From IMG/VR virus record IMGVR_UViG_3300028590_000009, positions 21,055 through 85,054 of that record: a stretch of 64,000 nt of DNA, one strand, 5' to 3'. The notes under the pieces are model-generated. The model was not told where the DNA came from. It was given only the letters and a program-made list of their open reading frames with translations, and ran no database searches. Each line of letters starts with the position of its first letter. The stretch's first letter is position 1. The stretch comes from a virus. A program made the translations under genes and the position numbers. Shown piece after piece: positions 136 to 60,827 of the stretch.

Positions 136-1659
136 ATGGTCGCGCTCCCACAGCGGCAGTCCACGACTGCATCGCGTCCGGCGCGCACCACGGTCACGAT
201 CCCGCGACGGTTCCTGTACTCCCCGCCTCCGGTCGCTCACTGGTCCGGTGTGGGCACTCTCGCCGCGACAGCTGTGCCGCGAGCGCTCGCCCTGTTCACT
301 GGTTCGGGTTCGGTTTCGGCTGCGGGTGGTGGCGTCGCTACTGCTGGCTTCACAGGCTCGGGTGAACTGTTCGCGTTCGTCGGCGATCCGCAAACGGGCG
401 CGGCGTTCACGGGCGAGGGTGTGTTGTCGGCGACTGCGAAAGCGGTTGCTACAGCGGCATTCACTGGCTCAGGTAGCGCGTCTGCCTCCTCTGCGGGTGT
501 CGGTTCCGCTGGGTTCTCCAGCGTCGGCACCGTTTCCGCGAGTGGTGCGGGTGCGGCTACGGCCGGGTTCACTGCTTCGGGTCTCGTTGCCGCGACTGGA
601 GCGCCATCGGTCAGTGCAGCGTTCACCGGTAGCGGCACGCTGACAGCTTCGGGCGTCCAAGCCGCTACGGCGGCATTCACAAGCTCTGGGGCATTGTCGG
701 CTACGGCTGTCGGTGTCGCTACGGCCGGATTCACGTCCAGCGGTACAGCATCGGCCACGGGTTCACCGCAAGCCAATGCAGGCTTCACGGGCGCTGGCAC
801 GTTGGCTGCGTTCACGAACTCGACTTCGGCCCCGTTCACGAACAACGGCAACCTTGCCGCGGTTGGTGCAGGCGGCGCGACGGGTCCGTTCACGAACTCG
901 GGTGTCCTCGCTGCGGTCGGTTCGCCTCGCGTGACTCCAGGCTTCACGAGCACGGGCACGCTATCGGCTACAGCGGTCGCTATCGCCAACGCACCGTTCA
1001 CGAGTGCAGGCACCCTCGCCGCTCCTGGTTCACCCCAAGCGGCTGCGGGATTCACCAACAACGGCAACCTCGCTGCTGCTGGTTCTCCTCGCGGTTTGGC
1101 CGGGTTCACGAACACGGGCGATCTGGCGGCTTCGGGCGCGGGTCGTGGCACGGCAGCGTTCACCGGTTCGGCAACGGTCTCCGCGACTGGTGCTGGCGCA
1201 GGCAACGCGGCGTTCACGGGTTCGGGTTCGCTCAGCGCGTCGGGCAGTTCGACGTCGTTGTCTGCGATGGGCATGGACAAGTCCGGGACGATGGCTATCG
1301 CGTCCGATCAGACGGCCACGGTTACGGGTTGGACAGCACGGTCGGGCTACAGCGCGACGGTCATCACCAGCAATGCGTTGATGCCCGATGGTGGCGGTTC
1401 GGTCACGGTGCAGTGCAAGCTCACCTTGTCCTCGGCGTGGTTCTCCGGCACGGCGCTTGTTGTTCGTGTGATGAAGAACGGCTCCCAGATCGCGTCGAGC
1501 ACGATCCCGTTCAACTCGGCGAGTGTGACGTTCAGTCCGATCTCGGCGACGCTCACGAACGGCGATGCACTCACTGTGCAGTTCACGAGCCCGTTCGGTG
1601 CTTCGGGAACGATCAACGCTGGCAGCACGTCCACTTATCTCTACTACGACCTGGTCTGA
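136..1659 (+). CDS. Repeat-rich minor tail / fibre-like protein
   Basis: A 507-residue protein. ATG at 136 is chosen over an upstream GTG (58) because the GTG would overlap the preceding tail gene by 76 bp. After a basic N-terminus (about 1-35) come 18 tandem units of about 18 residues, each opening with FT or FS plus a small-residue turn (FTGSG, FTNNG) and a small-residue beta stretch. The last 130 residues (from about SAMGMDKSG) form a different Ser/Thr-rich domain ending YLYYDLV, resembling a beta-sandwich receptor-binding or trimerisation head. A virion fibre or shaft role is inferred from position after a tail gene and from the repeat architecture. No enzymatic motif is visible. Confidence 0.7.
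   Translation: MVALPQRQSTTASRPARTTVTIPRRFLYSPPPVAHWSGVGTLAATAVPRALALFTGSGSVSAAGGGVATAGFTGSGELFAFVGDPQTGAAFTGEGVLSATAKAVATAAFTGSGSASASSAGVGSAGFSSVGTVSASGAGAATAGFTASGLVAATGAPSVSAAFTGSGTLTASGVQAATAAFTSSGALSATAVGVATAGFTSSGTASATGSPQANAGFTGAGTLAAFTNSTSAPFTNNGNLAAVGAGGATGPFTNSGVLAAVGSPRVTPGFTSTGTLSATAVAIANAPFTSAGTLAAPGSPQAAAGFTNNGNLAAAGSPRGLAGFTNTGDLAASGAGRGTAAFTGSATVSATGAGAGNAAFTGSGSLSASGSSTSLSAMGMDKSGTMAIASDQTATVTGWTARSGYSATVITSNALMPDGGGSVTVQCKLTLSSAWFSGTALVVRVMKNGSQIASSTIPFNSASVTFSPISATLTNGDALTVQFTSPFGASGTINAGSTSTYLYYDLV
295..1266 (+). repeat. 18 tandem 54-bp coding repeats
   Basis: From TTC ACT at 295 to the last FTGSG unit at 1213 there are exactly 17 periods of 54 bp: one unit is 19 codons, one is 17 and the rest are 18. 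Each unit starts with a TTC ACN-type Phe-Thr pair. Units have diverged in sequence while keeping length, suggesting old expansion under structural selection. Confidence 0.85.
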
Positions 1660-1825: not shown

Positions 1826-1851
1826 GCGCGCGAGTGCGCGAGTGTACATCC

Positions 1852-1878
1852 TGAACCAGAGTGTGTGATGTAAACTGA
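1852..1878 (+). promoter_or_regulatory. Tandem RACT operator/promoter, leaderless
   Basis: GAACC at 1853 and AAACT at 1872 are 19 bp apart; the second forms -10 hexamer TAAACT (1871-1876). The start codon follows 6 nt later, so +1 should coincide with the ATG at 1883. Same layout as the sites at 2569, 8771, 10788, 16116 and 50680. Confidence 0.6.
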
Positions 1879-1882
1879 TGGA

Positions 1883-2542
1883 ATGACGACGAGCCTTCGC
1901 ACTCCATCTCGTTACAGCGCCTACGAGCGACTTCGGATTGACGAGCCGATCGTGCGTGGCATCGAACAGCACCTGTACATCGTCGAACTCGTCGGCGTTG
2001 GAGTGAAAGTCGGAATCACCATCAATCCGAAAGCGCGGATTGCGACGCATCGTAGGGATGCGGCGGCGTACAAGCGCGAGGTTGGTCGACTGTATATTTC
2101 GATCCCCCATATCGAGGCGAGGGAGAATGAGCGCCGCTTGATCGCGTTGGGGGATGGTCGACGCGAGTACATGGATGTCGACTATGAACGGGCGCTGGAC
2201 CTCGCGGGCCAGCTGCCGCGCACTCGCGCGACTCGTCAGCAGTCCGAATTGCTGAAGCCTGTCGAGCAGCCTGAATCGCAGTGGGAGTATTCGATCGAGG
2301 CTGCGGCGCAAGAGTTGCAGGGGGTGGGTTACATGACTGGCAGGAAGCGTTTGACGAAGCTCATGTGGTCTCTGGGCTGGCTGCGGCGGGCGCGGCAGGG
2401 AGGCGTTCGACCGACTCGGGATGCGATCCGGGATGGGTTTCTGATCTATGCGCCTGCGGATGATTCGAGCCCGTTTGAGGTTTGGGTGACAGAGTCCGGG
2501 TTGGCTCATTTGGCGGCGCTGTTCGAGCGAGCGGCGGCGTAG
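1883..2542 (+). CDS. GIY-YIG/T5orf172-like nuclease domain with KilA-C-like domain
   Basis: A 219-residue protein. Residues about 32-60 (LYIVELVGVGVKVGITINP... RIATHRR) match the core of GIY-YIG/T5orf172 domains, a beta-hairpin followed by a conserved Arg/His helix. The C-terminal third (about 148-215, with RKRLTKLMWSLGWLRR and a ...GFLIYAP turn) resembles the KilA-C DNA-binding domain of phage antirepressors. The combination is typical of antirepressor or Bro-like proteins that act on DNA and on lysogeny control. The first gene of an early operon, with a predicted leaderless start. Domain calls are pattern recognition; nuclease activity is uncertain. Confidence 0.65.
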   Translation: MTTSLRTPSRYSAYERLRIDEPIVRGIEQHLYIVELVGVGVKVGITINPKARIATHRRDAAAYKREVGRLYISIPHIEARENERRLIALGDGRREYMDVDYERALDLAGQLPRTRATRQQSELLKPVEQPESQWEYSIEAAAQELQGVGYMTGRKRLTKLMWSLGWLRRARQGGVRPTRDAIRDGFLIYAPADDSSPFEVWVTESGLAHLAALFERAAA

Positions 2543-2568
2543 TCGTGCCGTTGATTGTGTTTGAATCC

Positions 2569-2595
2569 TGAACTTGAGTGCATGCGATAGACTGA
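2569..2595 (+). promoter_or_regulatory. Tandem RACT operator/promoter, leaderless
   Basis: GAACT at 2570 and AGACT at 2589 are 19 bp apart; -10 is TAGACT (2588-2593). ATG at 2600 follows after 6 nt. The two half-sites extend into near-identical GAACTTGAGTGCATG and AGACTGAATGCATG, a clear direct repeat. Confidence 0.65.
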
Positions 2596-5528: not shown

Positions 5529-5894
5529 TCACTGAGGCGGCACGCGTACCGCGTCGGACCACACTGTTCCATTCCACCAACGCTGGCTACCTGAACCGTG
5601 TGGATCCATGTACCAGCCTGGGGGAGGAGCGACACCCGCAGTCGCCATCGTCGGCGCGGATGTCCTGCGCACCAGATAGAACAGCAGCCACCCGAACGCG
5701 ATGACCACACCGACCGGGATCGCCAACGCCACCAGAAAGACCGGTCCAGCACCCGCCATGTCGAAGCCCAGAACGTTCATGCCCACATAGATCAGGATGT
5801 ACAGGACCACAGAAGCGCCAGCGCAGACGACCGCTTGAAGCCATGCGGGTGTAGGGCCAGCAGGCGGTTTGACCTGACCCTGCGGCGACTGCAT
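5529..5894 (-). CDS. Membrane protein with C-terminal DUF2510 domain
   Basis: A 121-residue protein beginning MQSPQGQ at 5894; longer in-frame starts would overlap the upstream gene heavily. Two hydrophobic spans (about 20-43 and 50-74) are followed by PPPGWYMDPHGSGSQRWWNG, the DUF2510 signature (P-G-W-Y-x-D-P...RWW-x-G). DUF2510 is a short extracytoplasmic or membrane-associated module in actinobacteria. Its ATG overlaps the previous stop by one base, so it is coupled with the DUF4352-like gene. Possibly expressed from the prophage to alter the host envelope. Confidence 0.8.
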   Translation of the reverse strand: MQSPQGQVKPPAGPTPAWLQAVVCAGASVVLYILIYVGMNVLGFDMAGAGPVFLVALAIPVGVVIAFGWLLFYLVRRTSAPTMATAGVAPPPGWYMDPHGSGSQRWWNGTVWSDAVRVPPQ

Positions 5895-6673
5895 CACCGC
5901 AAAGCGACCTTCGCCCCGCCAGAGAACATCGAATCGTGTAGCTCCAACGTCGTTGGCACCGTCCCCGCGGGCACATCGAACACCAGAGCAACCTGGATCT
6001 TGAAGCCCGGATTCAAATCCGACTCCCAATCCTCAGAACCCAACGCCCGCACAGCCGAAGAGTCATTCGCGAACTCACGGCCCTGCTCATCAATCAACGT
6101 CTGATTGCTATCGAAATAGGATTGCGGCTTGTTGCCCGTGTTGGTGATGTCCATGCGGATCACGATGAACTCACCCTTTGCGGTCACCGCCCGATAGCCG
6201 GATCCGAGCGCCGTAACAGGCGTTTCGACCGAGGTGACCTGGAACTCGAACTTGCCGTCACGCACCGCCGAACCAGGGGCTGCAACATTCTTGCCACGCG
6301 ACGGCGCCTGACTGGTCGGGGCGGCAGGTGCGGGCGCTTGCGGCGCACCCGGGGCGGCGACAGCCGCGATGGACGTCAGTGTCGTCGTCGATGCCGCATC
6401 TTTGGGATCGGAGTTGCTGGCAAGCCCCGCGATGCCCAAGCAGCCACCGCACAGCAGGATCGGCACACCGATGATGATGAACGGCCAAACGGGCGTCTTT
6501 TTCTTCGGGGGACGCGGCGGATACTGGCCCGCCATCGGTTGACCGTAGGGCGGCGGCTGAACCGGGTAACCAGGCTGTGTCCCGTAAGGCTGTTGAGGCC
6601 CGTTAGGTGGTGGTTGCTGCGGCGGATAGGTCACGGATTCCCCTGCTGTGTTCGAGTTGATGTCATCAACCAA
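5894..6673 (-). CDS. Membrane-anchored DUF4352-like surface protein
   Basis: A 259-residue protein: Pro/Gln/Tyr-rich cytoplasmic tail (1-57), KKK stop-transfer residues, one transmembrane span (about 63-86), an Ala/Pro linker, then a domain with FEFQVTSVETPV and EFIVIRMDITNTG typical of DUF4352 immunoglobulin-like folds. The design is common among actinobacterial surface proteins. In a phage lysogeny region it is a candidate superinfection-exclusion or lysogenic-conversion factor, which is inference. Confidence 0.8.
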   Translation of the reverse strand: MVDDINSNTAGESVTYPPQQPPPNGPQQPYGTQPGYPVQPPPYGQPMAGQYPPRPPKKKTPVWPFIIIGVPILLCGGCLGIAGLASNSDPKDAASTTTLTSIAAVAAPGAPQAPAPAAPTSQAPSRGKNVAAPGSAVRDGKFEFQVTSVETPVTALGSGYRAVTAKGEFIVIRMDITNTGNKPQSYFDSNQTLIDEQGREFANDSSAVRALGSEDWESDLNPGFKIQVALVFDVPAGTVPTTLELHDSMFSGGAKVALR

Positions 6674-6724: not shown

Positions 6725-6925
6725 TCAGCGTAACCGTTCGTCGGGGTACTCGGCGCGGCCCGCCGCGATAAACGCTTTCCGGCCCGCCCACATCCGCTCG
6801 AACACCGGGCCTGCTGTAGGTTCGCCCGCGTTGTTCCATGCCGTCAACGCGGCCCTCCACTCATTGAGCGCGAGACGATACGAGTCCCTGTGTGGATGGA
6901 TACGGATCACCTTCGCCGCGGTCAC
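6725..6925 (-). CDS. Hypothetical protein
   Basis: A 66-residue basic helical protein (MTAAKVIRIHPHRDSYRLAL start). Overlaps the upstream gene stop by 4 nt in the same minus-strand operon. The FERMWAGRKAFIAAGRAE segment looks amphipathic. No family recognised. Confidence 0.7.
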   Translation of the reverse strand: MTAAKVIRIHPHRDSYRLALNEWRAALTAWNNAGEPTAGPVFERMWAGRKAFIAAGRAEYPDERLR

Positions 6926-8730: not shown

Positions 8731-8770
8731 TGTTTCCGGGCGAGCGCGGGAGGTTGTGAGTATGTGCCGT

Positions 8771-8796
8771 GAACTGTAGGCTAGGAAACAAACTGG
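8771..8796 (+). promoter_or_regulatory. Tandem RACT operator/promoter of xis-int
   Basis: GAACT at 8771 and AAACT at 8790, 19 bp apart; -10 reads CAAACT (8789-8794). A GTG in frame with the excisionase ORF lies 6 nt downstream at 8801, the leaderless geometry seen at other copies. Confidence 0.55.
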
Positions 8797-8866
8797 AAGC
8801 GTGAAGGCAACGGGTGGCGACCGATCCGGCCCTGGACTTTCACATATCCGTTACCGGAGGCTCCCC

Positions 8867-9061
8867 ATGACCACAACCAACCAGTGGCTCACCCGCCGCG
8901 AAGTCGCGACACTCACCGGATTCTCCCCCAAAACCTTGGAGAACTGGGCTGCCATGAAACCACGCAAAGGCCCCAAATGCTTCAGGGTCGCCGGACGCGT
9001 CAGGTACTCGCTCGACGACGTCACCGCATGGCAGCAACGACAGACCGTCACGGCGGCGTGA
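8867..9061 (+). CDS. xis: Excisionase / HTH_17-type DNA-binding protein
   Basis: A 64-residue protein: WLTRREVATLTGFSPKTLENW is a MerR-like winged helix-turn-helix start, followed by the basic FRVAGRVRYSLDDVTAW wing. Directly upstream of the integrase, the usual recombination directionality factor position. ATG 8867 has a good Shine-Dalgarno (CCGGAGG, 7 nt away). An alternative GTG at 8801 would add 22 residues and sits exactly where a leaderless transcript would start, so two forms are possible. Confidence 0.85.
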   Translation: MTTTNQWLTRREVATLTGFSPKTLENWAAMKPRKGPKCFRVAGRVRYSLDDVTAWQQRQTVTAA

Positions 9062-10606: not shown

Positions 10607-10787
10607 TCGTCTCCTGAGGCACCGTCGGCGGACCCGATTTCAGCCCGGATCGCGACGACTGATCGCCCCTGTCCGAGCCGCCCGTTGCATCCACCCCTCA
10701 GCGTGTCGAATCCGAGACGCGCCGACGACTTTTCAACCCCCGCGAACTCTCGGCAACCACAACTACCCATTCATTGAAATTATGGCA

Positions 10788-10814
10788 TGAACTGGAGTTG
10801 ATGCTATAGACTGA
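10788..10814 (+). promoter_or_regulatory. Tandem RACT operator/promoter
   Basis: GAACT at 10789 and AGACT at 10808, 19 bp apart; -10 TAGACT (10807-10812). Unlike the leaderless copies, it is followed by a short leader with GTGAGG before the ATG at 10846. Confidence 0.6.
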
Positions 10815-10845: not shown

Positions 10846-11115
10846 ATGCCTGATAGCGCAGCCCTGTTTCAGCTCATCCGAGGCGGCATCTACCGCAACC
10901 CTCTGGGCGCCGAGCTGACCGCCCTCATGCCAGCGCGGGATTGGGACACCACTCGCCTCGGACCGATCGACCTCCAGCCAGTATTTGGCGACATCTGGAT
11001 CGTTGAGGCCGCAGGCGGCATCTTCGGCGGTGCGCGCCACCTCGCCACGGCAGATGGCCTCTCCGCTTACGGTTACCAGCTGGTTCCGGGCGCGACGGAG
11101 TTCAGCGATGTCTGA
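10846..11115 (+). CDS. Hypothetical protein
   Basis: An 89-residue protein, first in an operon of seven small genes. Contains GGIYRNPLGAELTALMPARDW and a Gly-rich middle (AAGGIFGGARHL). Purine-rich GTGAGGATTCCCC precedes the ATG. Function unknown. Confidence 0.75.
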   Translation: MPDSAALFQLIRGGIYRNPLGAELTALMPARDWDTTRLGPIDLQPVFGDIWIVEAAGGIFGGARHLATADGLSAYGYQLVPGATEFSDV

Positions 11116-14143: not shown

Positions 14144-14452
14144 CTATTCGCCGCCGAGTGCAGACATCCACGAATCCCCACCAGGGTCTTTGTGGTCGGT
14201 CATAAAGTCAGACGAAGCAGCAAGGCCCTCGGCCTCGGCAAGGATCTTCGACAAATCGGTACCCAGCACGGCCGCGACCGCCAACTGATCCTCCAGTTTC
14301 CAGTCGCTCCCGGTCTGCTCCCGCTTGCGATAAGAACTCTTGGACATGCCGAGCTTTTCCCACATGGTCTGTTGGGTCATCCCCGCCTCTCGCCGTCGCT
14401 GTGCGACCACACGCCCGAAGGCACGTTGCAGTCTTTCTTGGTGCCGTTCCAC
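14144..14452 (-). CDS. XRE-family HTH regulator, candidate phage repressor
   Basis: A 102-residue protein: GRVVAQRRREAGMTQQTMWEKL then GMSKSSYRKREQ is a classic Cro/CI helix-turn-helix (about 13-50), followed by a dimerisation-like tail. Faces away from the gene at 14855 across a 400-bp regulatory region. It could be the Cro/CI-type switch regulator or control the adjacent membrane protein. Confidence 0.85.
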   Translation of the reverse strand: MERHQERLQRAFGRVVAQRRREAGMTQQTMWEKLGMSKSSYRKREQTGSDWKLEDQLAVAAVLGTDLSKILAEAEGLAASSDFMTDHKDPGGDSWMSALGGE

Positions 14453-15414: not shown

Positions 15415-15924
15415 TCAGCCTTTGGAACGCGCAGTACGACGCGCAGGCTTCACATCTTCCTCGACACGCCTCAAAGCGCTACGACTGTCCTCGCCAGCTT
15501 CTATTCGCTGCAATGCGGGACCGGGACCGGGACCTAACCGTCTCCGTACAAGCTCGACGACTTGATCGTTTGTGAGCACCCCCGCAAGGATCTCGACATC
15601 GGTCGTCGGCAGCGGATCAGCCGTGATCCCCAGCTCCTCTTTGGTCACATAGCCTGCCCGCACGATCACTTCGGAGATCGGCCGACGGAAGGTTTCCGCG
15701 ACCTTGCGCACGATCGGCATCCGCGGCTGTTTGCCTTCGTCTTTCCAGGAGACCGGGGTTGTGGATGCGACGCCCAGGCGGCCGGCGAGGGCGTTGAAGC
15801 TGGGGATGCCTTCGATGTCCATGAGTTTCTGGATGTAGGGCCACCAGTCGGGGGCATTCGATTCGGTTGTGGCGGCAGCTTTGGCAGTCACGGTGGCACC
15901 CTTCACAGGTTTACCCATTGGCAT
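15415..15924 (-). CDS. HTH protein, candidate immunity repressor
   Basis: A 169-residue protein from ATG 15924 (MPMGKPVKGATV). Residues about 30-85 (YIQKLMDIEGIPSFNALAGRLGVASTTPVSWKDE..) form a helix-turn-helix of the XRE type, and the C-terminus is basic (RRVEEDVKPARRTARSKG). It sits divergently next to the early recombination operon, whose promoter carries tandem operator-like sites: the classic repressor position. An upstream in-frame start at 16038 would add 38 unlikely residues. Which of the three small HTH proteins is the true immunity repressor cannot be decided here. Confidence 0.75.
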   Translation of the reverse strand: MPMGKPVKGATVTAKAAATTESNAPDWWPYIQKLMDIEGIPSFNALAGRLGVASTTPVSWKDEGKQPRMPIVRKVAETFRRPISEVIVRAGYVTKEELGITADPLPTTDVEILAGVLTNDQVVELVRRRLGPGPGPALQRIEAGEDSRSALRRVEEDVKPARRTARSKG

Positions 15925-16022
15925 GGAGTAGATGGTCGGTGCAACTGATGTTACGACAGCGTAGGGCGACATCGAAAGGGTGTGTCGCGAACCAATCGGC
16001 GGACACATGGTCCGCCTCCTAA

Positions 16023-16092
16023 TCAAACCGCTGGTCATGCTTGGTTTGAGGGCATCCTAAATTCTTTGTCACACCACGAACTAACCGGTTTG
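16023..16092. promoter_or_regulatory. CAAACCG half-site cluster
   Basis: TCAAACC (16023) and GGTTTGA (16043) form an inverted repeat with a 13-bp gap; a third half-site, CGGTTTG, ends at 16092 inside AACCGGTT. Located between the repressor gene and the early promoter, so a likely repressor operator. Confidence 0.45.
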
Positions 16093-16115
16093 TGCCCGCA
16101 ATTCAGGTTACAGAC

Positions 16116-16142
16116 TAGACTGAATGCTGTACGATAAACTGA
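16116..16142 (+). promoter_or_regulatory. Tandem RACT operator/promoter of recombination operon
   Basis: AGACT (16117) and AAACT (16136) are 19 bp apart and both belong to -10-like hexamers, TAGACT and TAAACT (16135-16140). Likely start of the long early transcript into the YqaJ/RecT operon. Confidence 0.6.
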
Positions 16143-19824: not shown

Positions 19825-20552
19825 CCGGGCTCACGCACCGCACAAAGCAGACCAAACTCTACAAATGGCGCAAAGCCAACGGCATTCAAGTGTTCACCGA
19901 CGCCGCCCCGGTCCGCGCCCACATCCTCGAACTGCGCGCCGTCAACGTCACCGACTCGATGATCGCCCACGCCTCCGAATGCGACCCGCAATACATCGCC
20001 TACATCGCGGACGGCACAACCCAGAAGATGCGGCCCGACATCGCGCGCCGCATCCTCGACGTCAGCCACATCCCCGACCCGCGGCAACACTTCGTACTCG
20101 CCATCGGCTTCGTGCGACGCATGCGCGGACTCACCGCCCTCGGATGGCCGTCCATGCTGATCGCCGAACGGCTCGGCGTGCACGGCAAAGACAAACTCAA
20201 CAACATGGTCAGACAGACCGCGATCGGATACCAACGCTGGGCGGCCATGCGTGACCTGTACGACGAACTCTCAGGCACGCCAGGCCCCAGCCGTCGCAGT
20301 GTCGCAGTCGGTCGACGGTTCCAATACATGCCGCCGCTCGCCTGGGAAGGCATCGACATCGACGATCCGCGAGCCCAACCCGACTGGGCGGCAGCTGGAG
20401 TCAAGCTCACCGACCGACCCATGTGCCCGAACAACCACCTGTACACCGCGGACAACATCTATCGCGACAACCGTGGCAACCGTTCATGCAAGACCTGCCG
20501 GCGCAACGCGAACAGGCGCCGACGCCAGCGCGTTGCTAAGGGTGTGAACTAG
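19821..20552 (+). CDS. HTH protein with C-terminal zinc motif
   Basis: A 243-residue protein. Two HTH-like segments (about 27-75 and 108-150, LGWPSMLIAERLGVHGKDKL), then MCPNNHLYTADNIYRDNRG and SCKTCRRNANRRRRQR: a Cys/His-Cys-x2-Cys metal site plus basic tail, as in HNH-derived zinc modules. ATGA overlap with its paralogue-like neighbour. DNA binding is likely; nuclease residues are not complete. Confidence 0.75.
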   Translation: MTGLTHRTKQTKLYKWRKANGIQVFTDAAPVRAHILELRAVNVTDSMIAHASECDPQYIAYIADGTTQKMRPDIARRILDVSHIPDPRQHFVLAIGFVRRMRGLTALGWPSMLIAERLGVHGKDKLNNMVRQTAIGYQRWAAMRDLYDELSGTPGPSRRSVAVGRRFQYMPPLAWEGIDIDDPRAQPDWAAAGVKLTDRPMCPNNHLYTADNIYRDNRGNRSCKTCRRNANRRRRQRVAKGVN

Positions 20553-20758
20553 AGTGTATGGTGTGAACATAACGCGATGATCAAGCCCCTGGGCGGCGCG
20601 ACATCGGAAGGTGCTCGACCAAATCGAGCGTAACGCAATTCGGGCCGCCCCCTCGACCAAAAAGGGGCGGCCCGAACAAGCTTTGCACGCATTGGAGTGC
20701 GTGCGGCCAAGCAGTCAAATCGATTGCTGGCATGCGGCCCACCAGGAGGGGCCACCGT
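20553..20758 (+). promoter_or_regulatory. Structured leader before the HNH gene
   Basis: A 206-bp gap. GTGTGAACTAGAGTGTATG at 20547 resembles the RACT operator family but lacks a matching -10. Two hairpins follow: an 11-bp stem at 20641-20674 (CGGGCCGCCCC arms) and a 7-bp stem at 20685-20704 (GCACGCA arms). CAGGAGGGG at 20743 is the ribosome-binding site. The structure could be a partial terminator or attenuator that splits the operon. Confidence 0.5.
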
Positions 20759-36672: not shown

Positions 36673-37038
36673 TCAGGCGCCGACGAGGTGGGCGGTGCGG
36701 TTGTAGGCAGCGAACCCGGCCTTGAGGGCGGGATCGGCGGGGGAGTAGGCGAACACGCGGGTCGGGTGGCCGTTGCGTGCGGTCCACACCTGTACGGGGG
36801 CGGCACCGGTGAGGGCGATGAATGCGGCCTTGACCTTCTTGCCAGCGTGGGAGGCGTAGCGGCGCAGCAGGTCTTCGTCGGCGCCGAGCTGGCCGAGTGC
36901 GGTGGTGATGGTGACGAGGGTTCCGGTGCCGAGGAAGCGGGTGGTGGCTGCGACGAGGGCGTGTTGGATGCGTCGACGCAGGGCCTTGGCGTTGGCGCGG
37001 CGGGTGGCGGTGCTGGCGCGGTAGGTGCTGCGGATCAT
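36673..37038 (-). CDS. Hypothetical basic protein
   Basis: A 121-residue protein from ATG 37038 (GAAGGAGC upstream). The N-terminus is basic and Arg-rich (STATRRANAKALRRRIQHAL); the middle is helical and hydrophobic (TLVTITTALGQLGADEDLL). A minus-strand -10 TAAACT lies at 37083-37088. Possible nucleic-acid binder; unknown. Confidence 0.7.
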   Translation of the reverse strand: MIRSTYRASTATRRANAKALRRRIQHALVAATTRFLGTGTLVTITTALGQLGADEDLLRRYASHAGKKVKAAFIALTGAAPVQVWTARNGHPTRVFAYSPADPALKAGFAAYNRTAHLVGA

Positions 37039-37131
37039 CGGGGGCTCCTTCGGTAGCGGCTGATGTCTTCGACTGTACACTCAGTTTACGAACTGCACAA
37101 TATGCTAGGTCATAAACTATGGCGGACCTGC

Positions 37132-37448: not shown

Positions 37449-37636
37449 GGGGGCTCCTCGGGTCGGCGTCGGGACCGCTCGAATGTACGCTCAGTTGACA
37501 CGCTAGACAAGAGTGCAGGCCATGAACCGGATCGGTTACGAATCCGTGACTGATCGAGTATTGTCTACATCGCACACTTCAGTTTAGGCTGTGAACACAA
37601 ACCGGCTGGCACCGGAAATCGACCCCTGGAGGACAC

Positions 37637-41483: not shown

Positions 41484-41552
41484 CGGCGTCCTCGCTCGGA
41501 CTCAAGTAGCAAACTCCCTCAACCGTTTTCGGCGGGTGTCGCACGTTGTCTG

Positions 41553-41577
41553 CAACTCAGTGTGTACGCTAAACTTA
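41553..41577 (+). promoter_or_regulatory. RACT-type promoter variant with dyad
   Basis: CAACT at 41553 and AAACT at 41571 (18 rather than 19 bp); -10 TAAACT (41570-41575). GTGTAC (41562) and GTACAC (41579) form an inverted repeat over the -10. Likely drives the WhiB unit. Confidence 0.5.
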
Positions 41578-41633
41578 AGTACACACCACAGACTCAACGA
41601 CGACACCCGCCACACTCACCCCCGGAGGACGAC

Positions 41634-41741
41634 GTGAACACCAGAGCCATACTCCTCACCCCGATCGCCCTCCTCGCCGTGCCGATACTCCTGCTCGCCG
41701 GCATCATCCTCGCCATCGGTATTGCGGTGGTGCGCAAGTGA
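41634..41741 (+). CDS. Tiny single-span membrane protein
   Basis: A 35-residue frame from GTG 41634 (CGGAGGACGAC upstream): NTRAILLTPIALLAVPILLL then GIAVVRK. Hydrophobic throughout. GTGA overlap with whiB-like gene. Could be a regulator of membrane or simply a coupling gene. Confidence 0.55.
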   Translation: MNTRAILLTPIALLAVPILLLAGIILAIGIAVVRK

Positions 41742-44687: not shown

Positions 44688-45082
44688 CCGAGATCGACAC
44701 TCTGATCGACGATTTGGCATCCGAGCGTGCCCGTGCCGTCGACAACCTCGACCGCGAAACCATGGTCGTCGGTGCCAGCGAGTTCATCACGCTCTATGAC
44801 GCGCTCGTTGCTGCCCGTGACGAACTCGACCGTGTGGCGCATCTGCATGAGCAGTGGAAAGCGTCCGTCGATGACGACTACGCCCGGATCGCGGCGAAAC
44901 AGTTCCGGGACAAGGCCGCGCAGATCGCTCTTCGTACCGAGATCGAATCCCGCCTCGACCTGTGCAGGAACCCCGCAACCGTGGATGTGAAGACGGGCGA
45001 GTTCAAAAACCCTGACACGGCCGGGTATTCGCGGGCATTGCGGGAAGTGCTGACACTGCTCGACGGGGAGAAGACGGTATGA
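44684..45082 (+). CDS. Hypothetical coiled-coil protein
   Basis: A 132-residue helical protein (ARDELDRVAHLHEQWKASVD, RDKAAQIALRTEIESRLDLC), with a beta-like PATVDVKTGEFKNPDT turn. Overlaps the nucleotidyltransferase start. Unknown. Confidence 0.68.
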   Translation: MTEIDTLIDDLASERARAVDNLDRETMVVGASEFITLYDALVAARDELDRVAHLHEQWKASVDDDYARIAAKQFRDKAAQIALRTEIESRLDLCRNPATVDVKTGEFKNPDTAGYSRALREVLTLLDGEKTV

Positions 45083-46902
45083 GCGTGAACCCGCACAGCA
45101 CCGCGGAATTCGAGCGGATCGCCAAGGACAACACCATCCTCCTCGGCCAAGTCGGCTCGGGCCTGCACGGCGTCACCACGGGCGATGATGATCGCGACGA
45201 AATGGGCGTCTGTCTGGAACCGCCCGCCTACGTCATCGGCAACGCCCAGTTCGAGCAGTACATTTTCCGCACCCAACCCGAAGGTGTCCGTTCTGGCGCA
45301 GGCGATCTCGACCTCAACATCTACAGCCTGCGGAAATGGGCTCGCCTCGCCGCGCAGGGTAACCCGACAATCCTGCTGCTCATGTTCATTCCAGCGGACG
45401 AGCTGGTGATTTGCGACGCGTTCGGCGCCGATCTGCAAGCCCATCCCGAACGGTTCCTGTCGCGCCAAGTAGCGGACAGGTTCGCGGGCTATCTGGTGTC
45501 GCAGCGGGATCAGATGTTGGGGTTGAAGTCGAAGAAGCACACGAATCGGCCCGAATTGGTCGAGCAACATGGGTTTGATTGCTACCTCGATGACACCGAG
45601 TTTCTGACCCGTCGCGGGTGGCTCCTCTACGACCAGATTGACGACGGCGACGAACTCGCCACAATCAACCAGGACACAGGCCAAGTCGAGTTTCAGCGTT
45701 TCATCGAGCGCGTGTCAAAGCCTTACTCGGGGCCGATCCTCACCTGCAAGACGCGCTACAGCGAGTGGGCGGTGACGCCGAATCATCGTATGCGAGTGTC
45801 GAAGATGCGGCGCGGTTCATGCGGCGTGAACCCGCGGGCCTACAACCCTGCGACCGCCGCTTGGGGATTCCGTCCCGCTTCGGATGTGACCCGACTTGAC
45901 TGGTATCAGCAGGTTGTTGCCACGCCTCGGGATGAGGAGATCCCTGTCTCGGATGCGCACTTGGCGTTGATTGGCGCGTTCGTGTCCGAGGGGTCTTTCG
46001 GGAAGCGGCGTAAGGACGGCACTGTCGCCAACTTGCAGATATGCCAGGTGGACGGTGGACGCCTGCACGAGACGATGGTTCTCGCTGCAACGGAGTACGC
46101 GTTCCGGACCTACCGATTCAAGGCGCGTGACGAGACTCGGCGCCCAGGCACGATTTGGACGTTCTCGCATCGTGCGACCGTCGATGAGATCGTGAAGTCG
46201 TGTGGAGATCGCAGCGAGACTCGGCGGCTTCCAGATTGGGCGCTCAACCTCTCGGCTCGCCAGATAGACGTCCTGTTGGATGCGCTGCTCAGTGGCGATG
46301 GCACTCCGCATCGAACGGGAGGCTGGGTCTACTACACCACTTCGTGGGAGTTGGCCGGGCAGGTGCAGGCGATCGCTGTCATGCGTGGGCGTCGCGCGAA
46401 CGTTCGCGGGCCGTACGTGCACGATGGGAACACGGGCATGTATCAGGTGCTCATTCACGATGCTGGCGATACGCCGTTCGCGCCGTTTCGCGGCCGGGAT
46501 GTAAAGAGTGTCGATATCGAAAACCGATCCATTGTTTGCTTCACCGTGCCGAATGAGACCCTGGTAACCCGCCGCAATGGGCATGTTGCGATGCACGGAA
46601 ACACCAAATTCGCTTATCACATGGTTCGGCTCGGCTTGCAAGGCGTCGAAGTGCTCACAACCGGGCGCATCACCCTGCCCATTCCCGAGCCTGATCGGAC
46701 ATGGTTGCGGGAATTGCGGCGCGGCGAGCACACGAAAGAGGAGGCGTTGGCGCGCGCCGATGATCTGCTCGACCAGTTGAATGTGTTGGCGAAGACCGCG
46801 GACCTGCCCGAGCGGCCCGATTATGACGCTATCGACCGCTGGTTGACGACGTTCTATCTGGCGTGGTGGGAAAACACGGGCCTCATGTCCGAGTTCAGGT
46901 AG
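45079..46902 (+). CDS. COG3541-like nucleotidyltransferase interrupted by an intein
   Basis: A 607-residue precursor; the intein covers residues 168-508. Joined exteins give 266 residues with GSGLHG (26-31) and DDDRDEMGV, the GS...D-x-D pattern of COG3541/YcgL-type predicted nucleotidyltransferases, and a C-terminal D-T-K-x-A-Y-H-x-V-R-L rebuilt exactly across the splice junction (EQHGFD + TKFAYHMVRL). Such proteins are common in phages; their substrate (perhaps RNA or protein) is not settled. The insertion lies in the conserved DTKFAYH motif, as inteins tend to. Confidence 0.8.
   Translation: MSVNPHSTAEFERIAKDNTILLGQVGSGLHGVTTGDDDRDEMGVCLEPPAYVIGNAQFEQYIFRTQPEGVRSGAGDLDLNIYSLRKWARLAAQGNPTILLLMFIPADELVICDAFGADLQAHPERFLSRQVADRFAGYLVSQRDQMLGLKSKKHTNRPELVEQHGFDCYLDDTEFLTRRGWLLYDQIDDGDELATINQDTGQVEFQRFIERVSKPYSGPILTCKTRYSEWAVTPNHRMRVSKMRRGSCGVNPRAYNPATAAWGFRPASDVTRLDWYQQVVATPRDEEIPVSDAHLALIGAFVSEGSFGKRRKDGTVANLQICQVDGGRLHETMVLAATEYAFRTYRFKARDETRRPGTIWTFSHRATVDEIVKSCGDRSETRRLPDWALNLSARQIDVLLDALLSGDGTPHRTGGWVYYTTSWELAGQVQAIAVMRGRRANVRGPYVHDGNTGMYQVLIHDAGDTPFAPFRGRDVKSVDIENRSIVCFTVPNETLVTRRNGHVAMHGNTKFAYHMVRLGLQGVEVLTTGRITLPIPEPDRTWLRELRRGEHTKEEALARADDLLDQLNVLAKTADLPERPDYDAIDRWLTTFYLAWWENTGLMSEFR
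45580..46602 (+). mobile_element. Intein with LAGLIDADG-type endonuclease
   Basis: A 341-residue intein inside the nucleotidyltransferase. Starts at Cys168 (CYLDDTEFLTRRG), block B TPNHRMRV, ends ...VAMHGN before Thr. Endonuclease region with LALIGAFVSEGSFG and LLDALLSGDGTPHR as degenerate LAGLIDADG helices. The penultimate residue is Gly with His one earlier (HGN rather than HN), and the +1 residue is Thr. Likely self-splicing and homing-capable. Confidence 0.82.
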
Positions 46903-49906: not shown

Positions 49907-50676
49907 CCGCGTTCGAGGACTGGCAGCCGCAACGGATCGCGATCGCAGGCGATTGGCATGCCAACGTCGAGCACGCCCGGAAAGCCATCCGCTACGCAAA
50001 ACAGCAGGGTGCACAAGCCATCCTGCACGTGGGCGACACCTTCTACGACATGCGCGAGAACTTCGACGGCTCCCCGAACGTCCTCGACAAAGTGAACGAG
50101 GCTCTAGAGGAAGCGGGGCTGCTGTTCGGCTGGGTCGACGGCAACCATGACCGAAACGACTACCTGCAAGAACTCGCCATCGAACACGACTACCAGCCCG
50201 TCCAACTGCGCCCGAACATCTACTACCTCCCGCGCGGATTCCGCTGGACTTGGTGCGGCGTCTCGTTCCTGGCATTGGGTGGCGCCCACTCCGTCGACCG
50301 TCCTTGGCGTACCCCGCATGTCGAATGGTGGCCTGGGGAAACGATCGGCGCGGGGGATGCGTTGCGGGCGTGCGAGGGTGGCCGTGCAGACGTGATGGTG
50401 ACGCACGATGTCCCCGATGGTGTGCGCATCCCGTCCATCGAAGGCAACCCGCTGGGCTTCCCTGAACGCGAACTAGAGGCCGCGGAACGGAATCGGCGGG
50501 TGCTGCGCAGCGTCGTCGACGTTGTGCAGCCTCGGCGACTGTTCGCCGGCCACTACCACACGCGCCTCACTACGGAACTTGTCGGCGTCGACTACAAGAC
50601 CCGCGTGGATGTCCTCGACATGGACGGGCGGGCGATGGGTCAGAACGTCGCCATCGTGGACGTGGTAAGTCTGTAA
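49903..50676 (+). CDS. Calcineurin-like metallophosphoesterase
   Basis: A 257-residue protein with all five metal motifs: GDWHAN (16-21), VGD (43-45), GNHDR (80-84), VTHD (about 168), GHYH (about 216). It should hydrolyse phosphoesters or phosphodiesters using two metal ions; substrate (nucleotides, DNA ends or ligase intermediates) unknown. Last gene before the promoter at 50680. Confidence 0.92.
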   Translation: MTAFEDWQPQRIAIAGDWHANVEHARKAIRYAKQQGAQAILHVGDTFYDMRENFDGSPNVLDKVNEALEEAGLLFGWVDGNHDRNDYLQELAIEHDYQPVQLRPNIYYLPRGFRWTWCGVSFLALGGAHSVDRPWRTPHVEWWPGETIGAGDALRACEGGRADVMVTHDVPDGVRIPSIEGNPLGFPERELEAAERNRRVLRSVVDVVQPRRLFAGHYHTRLTTELVGVDYKTRVDVLDMDGRAMGQNVAIVDVVSL

Positions 50677-50679
50677 ACC

Positions 50680-50705
50680 AGACTTGAGTTCAGTGTGTAA
50701 ACTGG
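50680..50705 (+). promoter_or_regulatory. Tandem RACT operator/promoter, leaderless
   Basis: AGACT (50680) and AAACT (50699) are 19 bp apart; -10 TAAACT (50698-50703). ATG at 50710 follows 6 nt later. Upstream half-site is AGACTTGAGTTCAGTG. Confidence 0.62.
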
Positions 50706-58453: not shown

Positions 58454-58608
58454 GATCACAGCGTACACCCAGTTACGTCACGACATACAGTCTGTGACAT
58501 AAACTCGACACGCCGATCGGCGCTCACGCGGTCCGCCCAGGAGGCGACCGCCCCCACCCCCCCGAACGTGCACGGCCAGGCGCCGACACGTCCCACGGAG
58601 GACGCCCA

Positions 58609-59118
58609 ATGGCACGCAAAAAGACAATCCCCGTCGAAAAACTGGTAGCGACCCAAGAAAAACGCAACTACTGCCTCGAACGCAGACTCGCCGGCCTCAC
58701 GCAGAAAGAAATCTGCGAAGAAACAGGCTGGGACAAGTCCGCGGTCTCCCGCTACATCAGCACCGCCATCGCCGACATCACCCGCGAAAACGCCACCGAA
58801 TTCCTCGAAGTCGAGCTGGCCCGCCTGGACGCGATGTGGGCAGCCATCTGGGAAGACATCGTCAACCCAGGCGAAGACGACCGCAACGGCCAAACCTGGA
58901 AGATCGACCGCGCACTCGCGATCATGGACCAGCGCGCGAAACTCACCGGCAGCTACAAGACCGCCGAAATGAAAGCCGTCGCCGACGCCCGAGGCAACCT
59001 CAACACTGAAACCTCCTCGATGGTCGGCCGCTTCTTCGACGCCCTCGAAAAGGTGTACGAAGCCGACGGCATCACAGCGGCTACGGAGGCGCCCGAGTCT
59101 GCGGACGACGAACAGTGA
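58609..59118 (+). CDS. Terminase small subunit
   Basis: A 169-residue protein: basic start MARKKTIPVEKLVATQEKRN, HTH ...KEICEETGWDKSAVSRYIST, central helical oligomerisation region, acidic C-terminus. Directly before the large subunit with a 4-nt overlap. It should recognise the packaging site. CGGAGGACGCCC is the SD. Confidence 0.85.
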   Translation: MARKKTIPVEKLVATQEKRNYCLERRLAGLTQKEICEETGWDKSAVSRYISTAIADITRENATEFLEVELARLDAMWAAIWEDIVNPGEDDRNGQTWKIDRALAIMDQRAKLTGSYKTAEMKAVADARGNLNTETSSMVGRFFDALEKVYEADGITAATEAPESADDEQ

Positions 59119-60827
59119 GCCTGCTGGACACACTTCCCCTGTCCCGCAAACAAATCGCTTCCATCGTCGAAGCCCGCCGCGCACGAGTCTCCATACTCTC
59201 CGGCGCGGTGCGATCAGGCAAAACCATCGCCAGCATCCTCGCCTTCTACGACGCGGTACTACGCGCCCCCGAATCCGGGCTCATCATCATCGTCGGCCGA
59301 ACCTTGCAGACGATCGAACGCAACATCATCGAGCCCATGCAAGACCAAGCCGTATTCGGCATATGGTCGAACGAAGTCCACCACACACGCGGATCCTCCA
59401 CCGCGATCATCCTCGGCCGCACCATCCACCTGATCGGCGCCAACGACGTCCGCGCAGAAGGCAAACTCCGCGGCATGACCGCCTGCCTCGCGCTGGTGGA
59501 CGAAGCCACACTGCTCCCAGAAAACTTCTGGACCCAGCTCCTCGCGCGCCTCTCCGTCCCCGGCGCACGCTGCCTGGCAACCACCAACCCCGACAATCCA
59601 GCCCACTTCCTGAAGGTCAACTACATCGACCGACAGCACGAACTGGACTTGCGGGCCTGGTCGTTCATGCTCGACGACAACCCGTCACTCGACCCCGACT
59701 ATGTCGCCGCGATCAAAGCCGAATTCTCCGGACTGTTCTACCTGCGCAACATCAACGGATTGTGGGTCGCCGCCGACGGCGCCGTCTACGACTGCTTCGA
59801 CCCCGACCGCCACGTGGTGCCATGGGGCGAACTGCCCGACCTGCAATGCTATATCGGGATCGCCGTCGACCACGGCACCACCAACCCCACCCATGCGATC
59901 ATGCTCGGTTTAGGTGTCGACAACGTGCTGTATGCGGTCGACGAATGGCGGTATGCGCCCTCGAACAAAGAGGCCCGCAAAACCAACGTCCAACTCTCGC
60001 AAGGCTTACGGGGCTGGATGGCTACCGCCCATCATCCGCGCGAAGACCCGGACAGCCCGCCACGCATCACCTGCCCCGTTATTGTTGACCCTGCCGCCGC
60101 GGACTTCCGAGTCCAGTTGAAGCAGGACGGGCAACGCACGGTACCCGCCTACAACGAAGTGCTGTACGGGATTCGAACCACCTCCGCACTGTTCTCTATC
60201 GAAAAACTGAAGATCAGCGACCGATGCCCTGAACTGTTGAAAGAAATCCCCGGATATGTGTGGGATACGAAAGCGACAGAAGAAGGCAAGGATGCGCCGG
60301 TCAAGGTGAATGACCACGGCTGTTTTGTGGCCGGCACGCTGGTCGAAACCGTCGACGGGCCGCAGCCAATCGAAACGATCGAACCCGGAACGCTGGTGTT
60401 GACCCGGTTCGGGTATCGACCAGTCCTCGACGCTGGATGCACAGGGGTTCACGCTCCACGTGCGCTGCTCCTGGCCGACGGCACCACATTGCTTGGGACT
60501 GCGAATCATCCGGTGTTCGTCGACGGCGAAGGCTTCACGCCGATCGAGGAACTCCACCCCGGCGACGTCATTCAGCAGGCGACTGGTACGAGCGCCGTCG
60601 TCAGTGTCGATTGGGTCAAAGGTCTCGAACCCGTCTACAACCTGACAGTATTCGAACAGCCTGAGTATTACGCGAACGGCGTACTCGTCCACAACTGCGA
60701 CTCGTTGCGCTACTCCATCGCATCGACTGAACGCAAATGGCGGCGTCGTATCAAACTCGCAACCCAATTCCGACCCGAAACGGCGGACGAAGATCCTGGC
60801 TTTACAAAGCAAATAGACTTGAAGTAA
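59115..60827 (+). CDS. Terminase large subunit with intein
   Basis: A 570-residue precursor; 445 residues without the intein. ATPase: Walker A SGAVRSGKT (29-37), Walker B ACLALVDEA (Asp129, Glu130). Nuclease: VDHGTTNPTH (Asp252), later acidic residues. It packages phage DNA and makes the terminal cuts. Intein is at residue 403, splitting NDHG/CDSLRY near the last nuclease motif. GTG start. Confidence 0.92.
   Translation: MSLLDTLPLSRKQIASIVEARRARVSILSGAVRSGKTIASILAFYDAVLRAPESGLIIIVGRTLQTIERNIIEPMQDQAVFGIWSNEVHHTRGSSTAIILGRTIHLIGANDVRAEGKLRGMTACLALVDEATLLPENFWTQLLARLSVPGARCLATTNPDNPAHFLKVNYIDRQHELDLRAWSFMLDDNPSLDPDYVAAIKAEFSGLFYLRNINGLWVAADGAVYDCFDPDRHVVPWGELPDLQCYIGIAVDHGTTNPTHAIMLGLGVDNVLYAVDEWRYAPSNKEARKTNVQLSQGLRGWMATAHHPREDPDSPPRITCPVIVDPAAADFRVQLKQDGQRTVPAYNEVLYGIRTTSALFSIEKLKISDRCPELLKEIPGYVWDTKATEEGKDAPVKVNDHGCFVAGTLVETVDGPQPIETIEPGTLVLTRFGYRPVLDAGCTGVHAPRALLLADGTTLLGTANHPVFVDGEGFTPIEELHPGDVIQQATGTSAVVSVDWVKGLEPVYNLTVFEQPEYYANGVLVHNCDSLRYSIASTERKWRRRIKLATQFRPETADEDPGFTKQIDLK
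60321..60695 (+). mobile_element. Mini-intein in large terminase
   Basis: A 125-residue intein: CFVAGTLVETVDGPQPIETI starts with Cys, then TANHPVFVDGEGF (block B-like THxxH region) and VLVHN before +1 Cys. No homing endonuclease domain. Complete splice signals, so likely active in splicing but immobile. Confidence 0.87.

What the first reader, a model, noticed from the sequence alone, without database searches (positions are those of the whole stretch)
2569..2595. Genome-wide tandem RACT(19)RACT operator/promoter element
The half-site RACT (plus following GA or TGAG) occurs in pairs exactly 19 bp apart at 1853, 2570, 8771, 10789, 16117 and 50680, always upstream of a gene and with the second copy forming -10 TARACT or CAAACT. 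Variants lie at 41553 and on the minus strand at 37490. Nineteen bp is close to two helical turns, fitting cooperative repressor binding or a novel sigma-like promoter. It links xis-int, the RecT operon and accessory operons under one signal.
Basis: seen in the sequence. Interest (0 to 1): 0.72.

Follow-up and report, generated by a model that had tools for sequence, protein, structure and literature searches.

The report
Twin repressor operators at phage promoters
The repeated RACT signal is most likely a pair of adjacent palindromic switch sites, placed at about a dozen promoters of a temperate Nocardia-type phage so that one phage repressor can silence them all, and its sister phages keep the same 19-bp layout while each uses a different DNA word.

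Summary
The repeat is real but was parsed wrongly. It is not a direct repeat of RACT. It is two adjacent 17-bp palindromes, AGTNTR-N5-YRNACT, separated by 2 bp and so 19 bp centre to centre. The left one covers the -35 zone; the right one ends in the -10 hexamer (usually TARACT). Eleven pairs and one strong single site lie in promoter regions; nine pairs have both centres in called noncoding DNA at exactly 19 bp. The left arm, not used to find the sites, matches the palindrome far beyond chance (P<5e-5).

It is not a novel sigma promoter. The composite word is absent from 152 Nocardia genomes, and syntenic sister (pro)phages carry different words at matching promoters. A blind search for paired palindromes in nine sisters gives 34 pairs at 19 bp against 5-14 at every other spacing from 16 to 30 bp. 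Layout is conserved, sequence is not.

This fits operators of an immunity repressor whose specificity diverges. The best reader is the CI/XRE-like gene at 15415-15972 (-): its recognition helix differs in the closest sister, while those of the other conserved regulators barely do. At three sites, possibly four, the mRNA is predicted to start at the start codon.

New variant of a known kind; binding is inferred, not shown.

The parts
1841..1876 (+). operator pair O1 1841-1857, O2 1860-1876; -10 TAAACT 1871-1876; ATG of the 219-aa T5orf172/KilAC-like gene at 1883, 6 nt after the -10
2558..2593 (+). operator pair O1 2558-2574, O2 2577-2593; -10 TAGACT 2588-2593; ATG of the 54-aa phrog_1622 gene at 2600, 6 nt after the -10
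8759..8794 (+). operator pair upstream of xis-int; -10 CAAACT 8789-8794; GTG at 8801 (an SD-preceded ATG lies at 8867)
10777..10812 (+). operator pair upstream of the operon starting at 10846; -10 TAGACT 10807-10812
16100..16140 (+). operators between the repressor gene (leftward) and the RecE/RecT-type operon (rightward): pair 16105-16121 / 16124-16140 plus an overlapping site 16100-16116; -10 TAAACT 16135-16140
20534..20569 (+). operator pair before the HNH/replication operon; -10-like TGAACA
37083..37118 (-). operator pair, leftward promoter (-10 TAAACT on the minus strand) of the gene at 36673-37038
37562..37597 (.). operator pair with -10-like words on both strands (TGAACA rightward, TAGACA leftward)
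41559..41594 (+). operator pair shifted by one unit: O1 ends in -10 TAAACT (41570-41575), O2 lies downstream; consensus-like -35 TTGTCT 41546-41551, 18-bp spacer; operon includes a WhiB-like gene at 41738
50668..50703 (+). operator pair; -10 TAAACT 50698-50703; ATG 50710, 6 nt after the -10
58489..58505 (+). single strong operator (highest score) with -10 TAAACT upstream of the terminase small subunit gene; partner degenerate
6655..6671 (.). single near-perfect palindrome AGTTGATGTCATCAACC between genes 5894-6634 (-) and 6725-6925 (-)
15415..15972 (-). CI/XRE-like immunity repressor gene, predicted reader of the operators (frame open to 16038)
14144..14380 (-). second XRE-type HTH gene, disfavoured as reader

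Best explanation
Each element is a promoter covered by two adjacent 17-bp palindromic operators (AGTNTR-N5-YRNACT) whose centres are 19 bp apart. O1 covers the -35 zone and O2 covers the spacer and the -10 hexamer. In a lysogen, dimers of the phage's CI/XRE-like repressor, most likely the product of 15415-15972 (-), would bind O1 and O2 side by side, probably cooperatively, and exclude host SigA RNA polymerase. One protein would thereby hold about twelve promoters off: xis-int, the RecE/RecT-type operon, replication, accessory operons, a T5orf172/KilAC-like gene and probably terminase. Loss of repressor would release them together. Shown here: the palindromes, the spacing, the promoter overlap, and conservation of the layout with divergence of the word in sister phages. 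Inferred: repressor identity, binding, cooperativity and repression.
For: Symmetric 17-mer: 25 noncoding sites above score 9, while whole-genome shuffles give a mean of 8.9 sites, about 1 of them expected in noncoding DNA; nine pairs of noncoding centres lie exactly 19 bp apart. The held-out left arm matches 40 of 55 positions, random noncoding mean 15.2, maximum 28 in 20,000 draws. Sister G001 (Nocardia xishanensis prophage): operator TYGCATNCANTGNATGCRA, 21 noncoding hits against 0.9 expected, seven pairs at exactly 19 bp. Blind paired-palindrome search in nine sisters: 34 pairs at 19 bp, 5-14 at each other spacing from 16 to 30, shuffled 5.2 per spacing; five distant named phages and a control phage show no such peak. 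The repressor gene stands divergent to the RecE/RecT-type operon in all family members examined, its distant homologues are annotated as immunity repressors, and it matches PHROG repressor families. Between G000 and G039, whose operators differ, its recognition helix changes (ASTTPVSWKD to SQSTPYQWER), while those of 14144 (SKSSYRKREQ to SKSSYRRREQ) and 19102 (88% identical overall) hardly change. The predicted fold is a five-helix XRE/CI-type HTH with pLDDT above 90.
Against: No binding or expression data exist. The operator models were partly trained on the sites they score. Operators in G039, G098 and G131 were characterised only roughly, and G039 and G081 each show just one 19-bp pair. G039 encodes a WhiB-like homologue at only 46% identity, so divergence alone does not single out the repressor. 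Most G000 sites lack a recognisable -35, which could mean activator dependence. The host genus is inferred from relatives.
Confidence: 0.78

Rival explanations
1. Activator-dependent promoters: a phage activator (the WhiB-like protein at 41738, or a dual-role CI-like protein) binds the upstream half and compensates for the missing -35 on host SigA RNA polymerase.
For: Twelve of the thirteen elements listed lack a consensus-like -35 at 17-18 bp. The upstream operator sits at a fixed distance from the -10. A WhiB-like gene is present (E 6e-6) and WhiB proteins act with SigA (established knowledge).
Against: The sites are palindromes suited to an HTH dimer. The site at 41559 has a TTGTCT -35 and its second operator lies downstream of the -10. 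In G001 pairs occur both as upstream/-10 and as -10/downstream, with TTGCRT -35 elements, so the spacing follows the protein rather than the promoter. Lack of a -35 is common in actinobacteria.
Confidence: 0.12
2. A novel sigma-type promoter (phage-encoded or host alternative sigma) with a GAACT-like -35 and a TARACTGA -10.
For: Fixed spacing and strongly conserved blocks; GAACTT resembles the -35 of ECF sigma factors.
Against: No sigma factor over cut-off in G000. Zero matches of the composite word in 152 Nocardia genomes. Sisters use different words at matching promoters. The dyad symmetry is unexplained. The -10 together with the start-codon position fits SigA.
Confidence: 0.03
3. The second HTH protein (14144-14380, -), or another phage regulator such as 19102 or 37132, reads the operators.
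For: The 14144 gene is conserved next to the repressor gene in several sisters and is an XRE-type HTH.
Against: Its recognition helix is nearly identical in G039, whose operators differ; 19102 is 88% and 37132 77% identical there.
Confidence: 0.12

Closest known systems
Stoperator/operator system of cluster A mycobacteriophages (L5 gp71, TipsytheTRex; PMC9283540, PMC6550527)
   Same: One small phage repressor with many sites across the genome; site sequence diverges with the repressor and defines immunity groups.
   Different: L5-type sites are 13-bp, asymmetric, bound by a monomer with two DNA-binding domains, and mostly not at promoters. These are 17-bp palindromes in fixed pairs, overlapping promoters.
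Phage P1 C1 repressor operators (22 dispersed 17-bp sites, PMC8546580)
   Same: Dispersed operators of about 17 bp under one lysogeny repressor.
   Different: P1 sites are asymmetric (ATTGCTCTAATAAATTT); here they are palindromic and in pairs at a fixed spacing.
Lambda/P22/434-type CI operators (from general knowledge)
   Same: 17-bp dyad operators next to each other at a promoter, XRE/CI-type HTH; repressor gene divergent from the early operon.
   Different: Lambdoid operators are confined to two control regions (OR, OL); here pairs recur at about twelve promoters. Centre spacing is 19 bp, not about 23-24. No cleavable C-terminal domain is apparent in the repressor.
Immunity repressors of Mycobacterium phage Yoshi, Gordonia phages Malisha and Confidence, M. 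abscessus prophage CCUG48898T-2
   Same: Homologous repressor (28-30% identity over the HTH and following region), divergent from the early genes.
   Different: Their control regions share TTGCGY-N2-3-RCGCAA-like words and show no 19-bp pairing.

Membership tests
CI/XRE-type temperate-phage immunity repressor with palindromic operators | XRE/CI HTH protein, gene divergent from the early operon | tested here: met
CI/XRE-type temperate-phage immunity repressor with palindromic operators | dyad operators overlapping early promoters | tested here: met
CI/XRE-type temperate-phage immunity repressor with palindromic operators | repressor binds the operators and represses transcription | not testable with these tools
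   needs gel shift, footprint and reporter assays
Lambda CI proper | cleavable (S24/LexA-like) C-terminal domain | tested here: not met
   no such domain in Pfam or PHROG scans; the C-terminal part is short and of low predicted confidence. So it works like CI but is not filed as a lambda CI; many phage repressors lack this domain
Cluster A stoperator system | asymmetric 13-bp sites | tested here: not met
   17-bp palindromes; definition from PMC9283540
Cluster A stoperator system | most sites away from promoters, blocking elongation | tested here: not met
   nearly all strong noncoding sites overlap a -10 word
Alternative-sigma promoter | cognate sigma factor and recurrence of the motif in the host | tested here: not met
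   host genus inferred only

The most novel reading that the evidence does not exclude
An 85-92-kb family of Nocardia phages runs a genome-dispersed lysogeny regulon through twin palindromic operators with an invariant 19-bp centre spacing while the operator sequence is freely replaced. That would be a repressor family whose dimer-dimer geometry is fixed but whose DNA specificity is highly evolvable, giving many heteroimmune groups.
Probability: 0.6. Interest if true: 0.55.

Novelty: new variant of a known kind. Interest (0 to 1): 0.45.

Why it matters
If right, it supplies a complete predicted lysogeny circuit (repressor, operators, regulon) for a group of Nocardia phages for which I found no such description, and a natural series of repressor/operator pairs with the same geometry but different words. 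That makes it possible to read how HTH recognition residues map to operator sequence, and to predict immunity groups from sequence alone.

Tried and rejected
(1) Direct-repeat half-site model (RACTNGAGTG monomer sites): it explained the right arms only; the left arm and dyad centres forced the palindrome model. (2) ECF-type promoter reading: rejected. (3) HAIR/HspR and LexA boxes: considered from memory; the spacing does not fit. (4) Shared motif in phages related through RecT or capsid: none. (5) Composite pattern in viral contigs: 45 single hits in contigs of at most 50% GC, consistent with chance. (6) De novo EM motif search was too slow or too diffuse. (7) Repressor relatives in viral contigs with single-protein patterns: none. 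(8) Word-level 19-bp autocorrelation in sisters: weak because of residual codon periodicity; the palindrome-pair test was decisive instead. (9) Extension to named distant relatives: negative. (10) Fold search: only generic XRE matches (C proteins, SinR, P22 c2), none below E 1e-3.

Full report
Observation. The window is bases 21055-85054 of an 85,054-base virus record. RACT-N15-RACT occurs as stated at five of the six main coordinates; at 1853 the first copy is AACC. The pattern is enriched over shuffles. Noncoding RACT words show a single spacing peak at 19 bp. All eight TARACTGR words in the record are noncoding. In leave-one-out scoring, five of the six seeds are outscored by at most two non-seed positions in both strands of 85 kb; the weakest, 16117, by eight.

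Re-parsing. These are two palindromes AGT-N11-ACT, separated by 2 bp, with centres at -4 and 15. The alignment's best dyad centres are 5.5 (the symmetry axis of the pair), -4.0 and 15.0. The block at -12..-7 lies outside the 27-bp matrix that found the sites, so it is a held-out test; it matches 40 of 55 positions against a random maximum of 28 in 20,000 draws. A symmetric 17-mer matrix gives 25 noncoding hits above 9 and nine pairs of noncoding centres exactly 19 bp apart. The pairs at 20542/20561 and 50676/50695 each have one centre in a called gene end and raise the total to eleven. The RACT 'direct repeat' is simply the right arm of each palindrome.

Relation to promoters. O2 ends in the -10 word; O1 covers where a -35 would lie. 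Most sites have no consensus-like -35; 41559 has TTGTCT-N18-TAAACT. At 1883, 2600, 8801 and 50710 a start codon follows the -10 hexamer by exactly 6 nt, which predicts leaderless mRNA, common in actinobacteria (general knowledge). For xis, a later ATG at 8867 preceded by GGAGG may be the real start, so three of the four cases are firm.

Relatives. RecT and capsid searches gave a syntenic relative, G001, which is a Nocardia xishanensis prophage. A repressor search in 152 Nocardia genomes gave further syntenic prophages or 85-88-kb contigs, G039, G069, G098, G131, G080 and G081; G008 and G011 came from viral contigs. None uses the G000 word. G001 uses TYGCATNCANTGNATGCRA, 21 noncoding hits against 0.9 expected, with seven pairs at exactly 19 bp. 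G039, G131, G098, G011 and G008 show other promoter-associated words. A blind scan for pairs of similar palindromes at spacings 16-30, with no sequence assumed, gives 34 pairs at 19 bp in nine sisters, 5-14 at every other spacing and 5.2 per spacing in shuffles. G011 and G001 contribute nine and eight; G039 and G081 one each. Five named phages with distant repressors and one control phage show no peak. So the geometry is a family trait and the word is not.

Reader of the operators. A protein that reads diverging words must itself diverge at its recognition helix. Against G039, the 14144 protein keeps SKSSYRKREQ nearly unchanged, 19102 is 88% and 37132 77% identical, but the 15415 protein changes from ASTTPVSWKD to SQSTPYQWER. 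The 15415 gene stands divergent to the RecE/RecT-type operon with operators between them, its homologues are annotated as immunity repressors, and the predicted fold is a five-helix XRE/CI HTH with its third helix at 72-79. The WhiB-like gene at 41738 also diverges (46%), so the case for the repressor is strong rather than closed.

Against a sigma factor. The composite word is absent from 152 Nocardia genomes, there is no sigma factor over cut-off, and the symmetry and diverging words would be unexplained.

Comparison. Cluster A stoperators are 13-bp, asymmetric, monomer-bound and mostly outside promoters (PMC9283540, PMC6550527, PMC9934374). P1 C1 sites are dispersed but asymmetric (PMC8546580). 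Lambdoid operators are palindromic and adjacent but confined to two regions. The present system combines palindromic adjacent operators with genome-wide dispersal. The literature searches found no description of it, within an open-access library only.

Limits. Gene calls come from a home-made caller. The operator matrices were partly trained on the scored sites. The host is inferred. Transcription starts, binding, cooperativity and repression are inferred.

Noticed in passing
L131 (Yoshi), L133 (CCUG48898T-2), L134 (Malisha), L135 (Confidence), repressor/early intergenic regions: These Mycobacterium and Gordonia phages appear to share one operator-like word, TTGCGY-N2-3-RCGCAA, across host genera, which would suggest shared immunity specificity.
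   Followed up: no
window 15973-16038 and L068 10675-10760: The leader upstream of the repressor start is strongly conserved between G000 and G039 (frame PYAVVTSVAPT), although G039 has an in-frame stop there; it may be a conserved untranslated leader.
   Followed up: no
G098:C45 (87,684), G131:C26 (87,997), G080:C10 (85,590): In three Nocardia assemblies the related phage fills a separate contig of about phage-genome length, suggesting excised or extrachromosomal prophages.
   Followed up: no
window 59115-60827 and 45079-46902: By eye, the terminase large subunit and a nucleotidyltransferase-like gene contain intein-like starts; not tested.
   Followed up: no
window 1883-2542: The first gene under the element joins a T5orf172-like part with a weak KilAC (antirepressor) match, so a possible antirepressor would be under repressor control.
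   Followed up: partly
window 250-1659: Tail-type protein with repeats spaced at multiples of 54 bp (18 residues).
   Followed up: no
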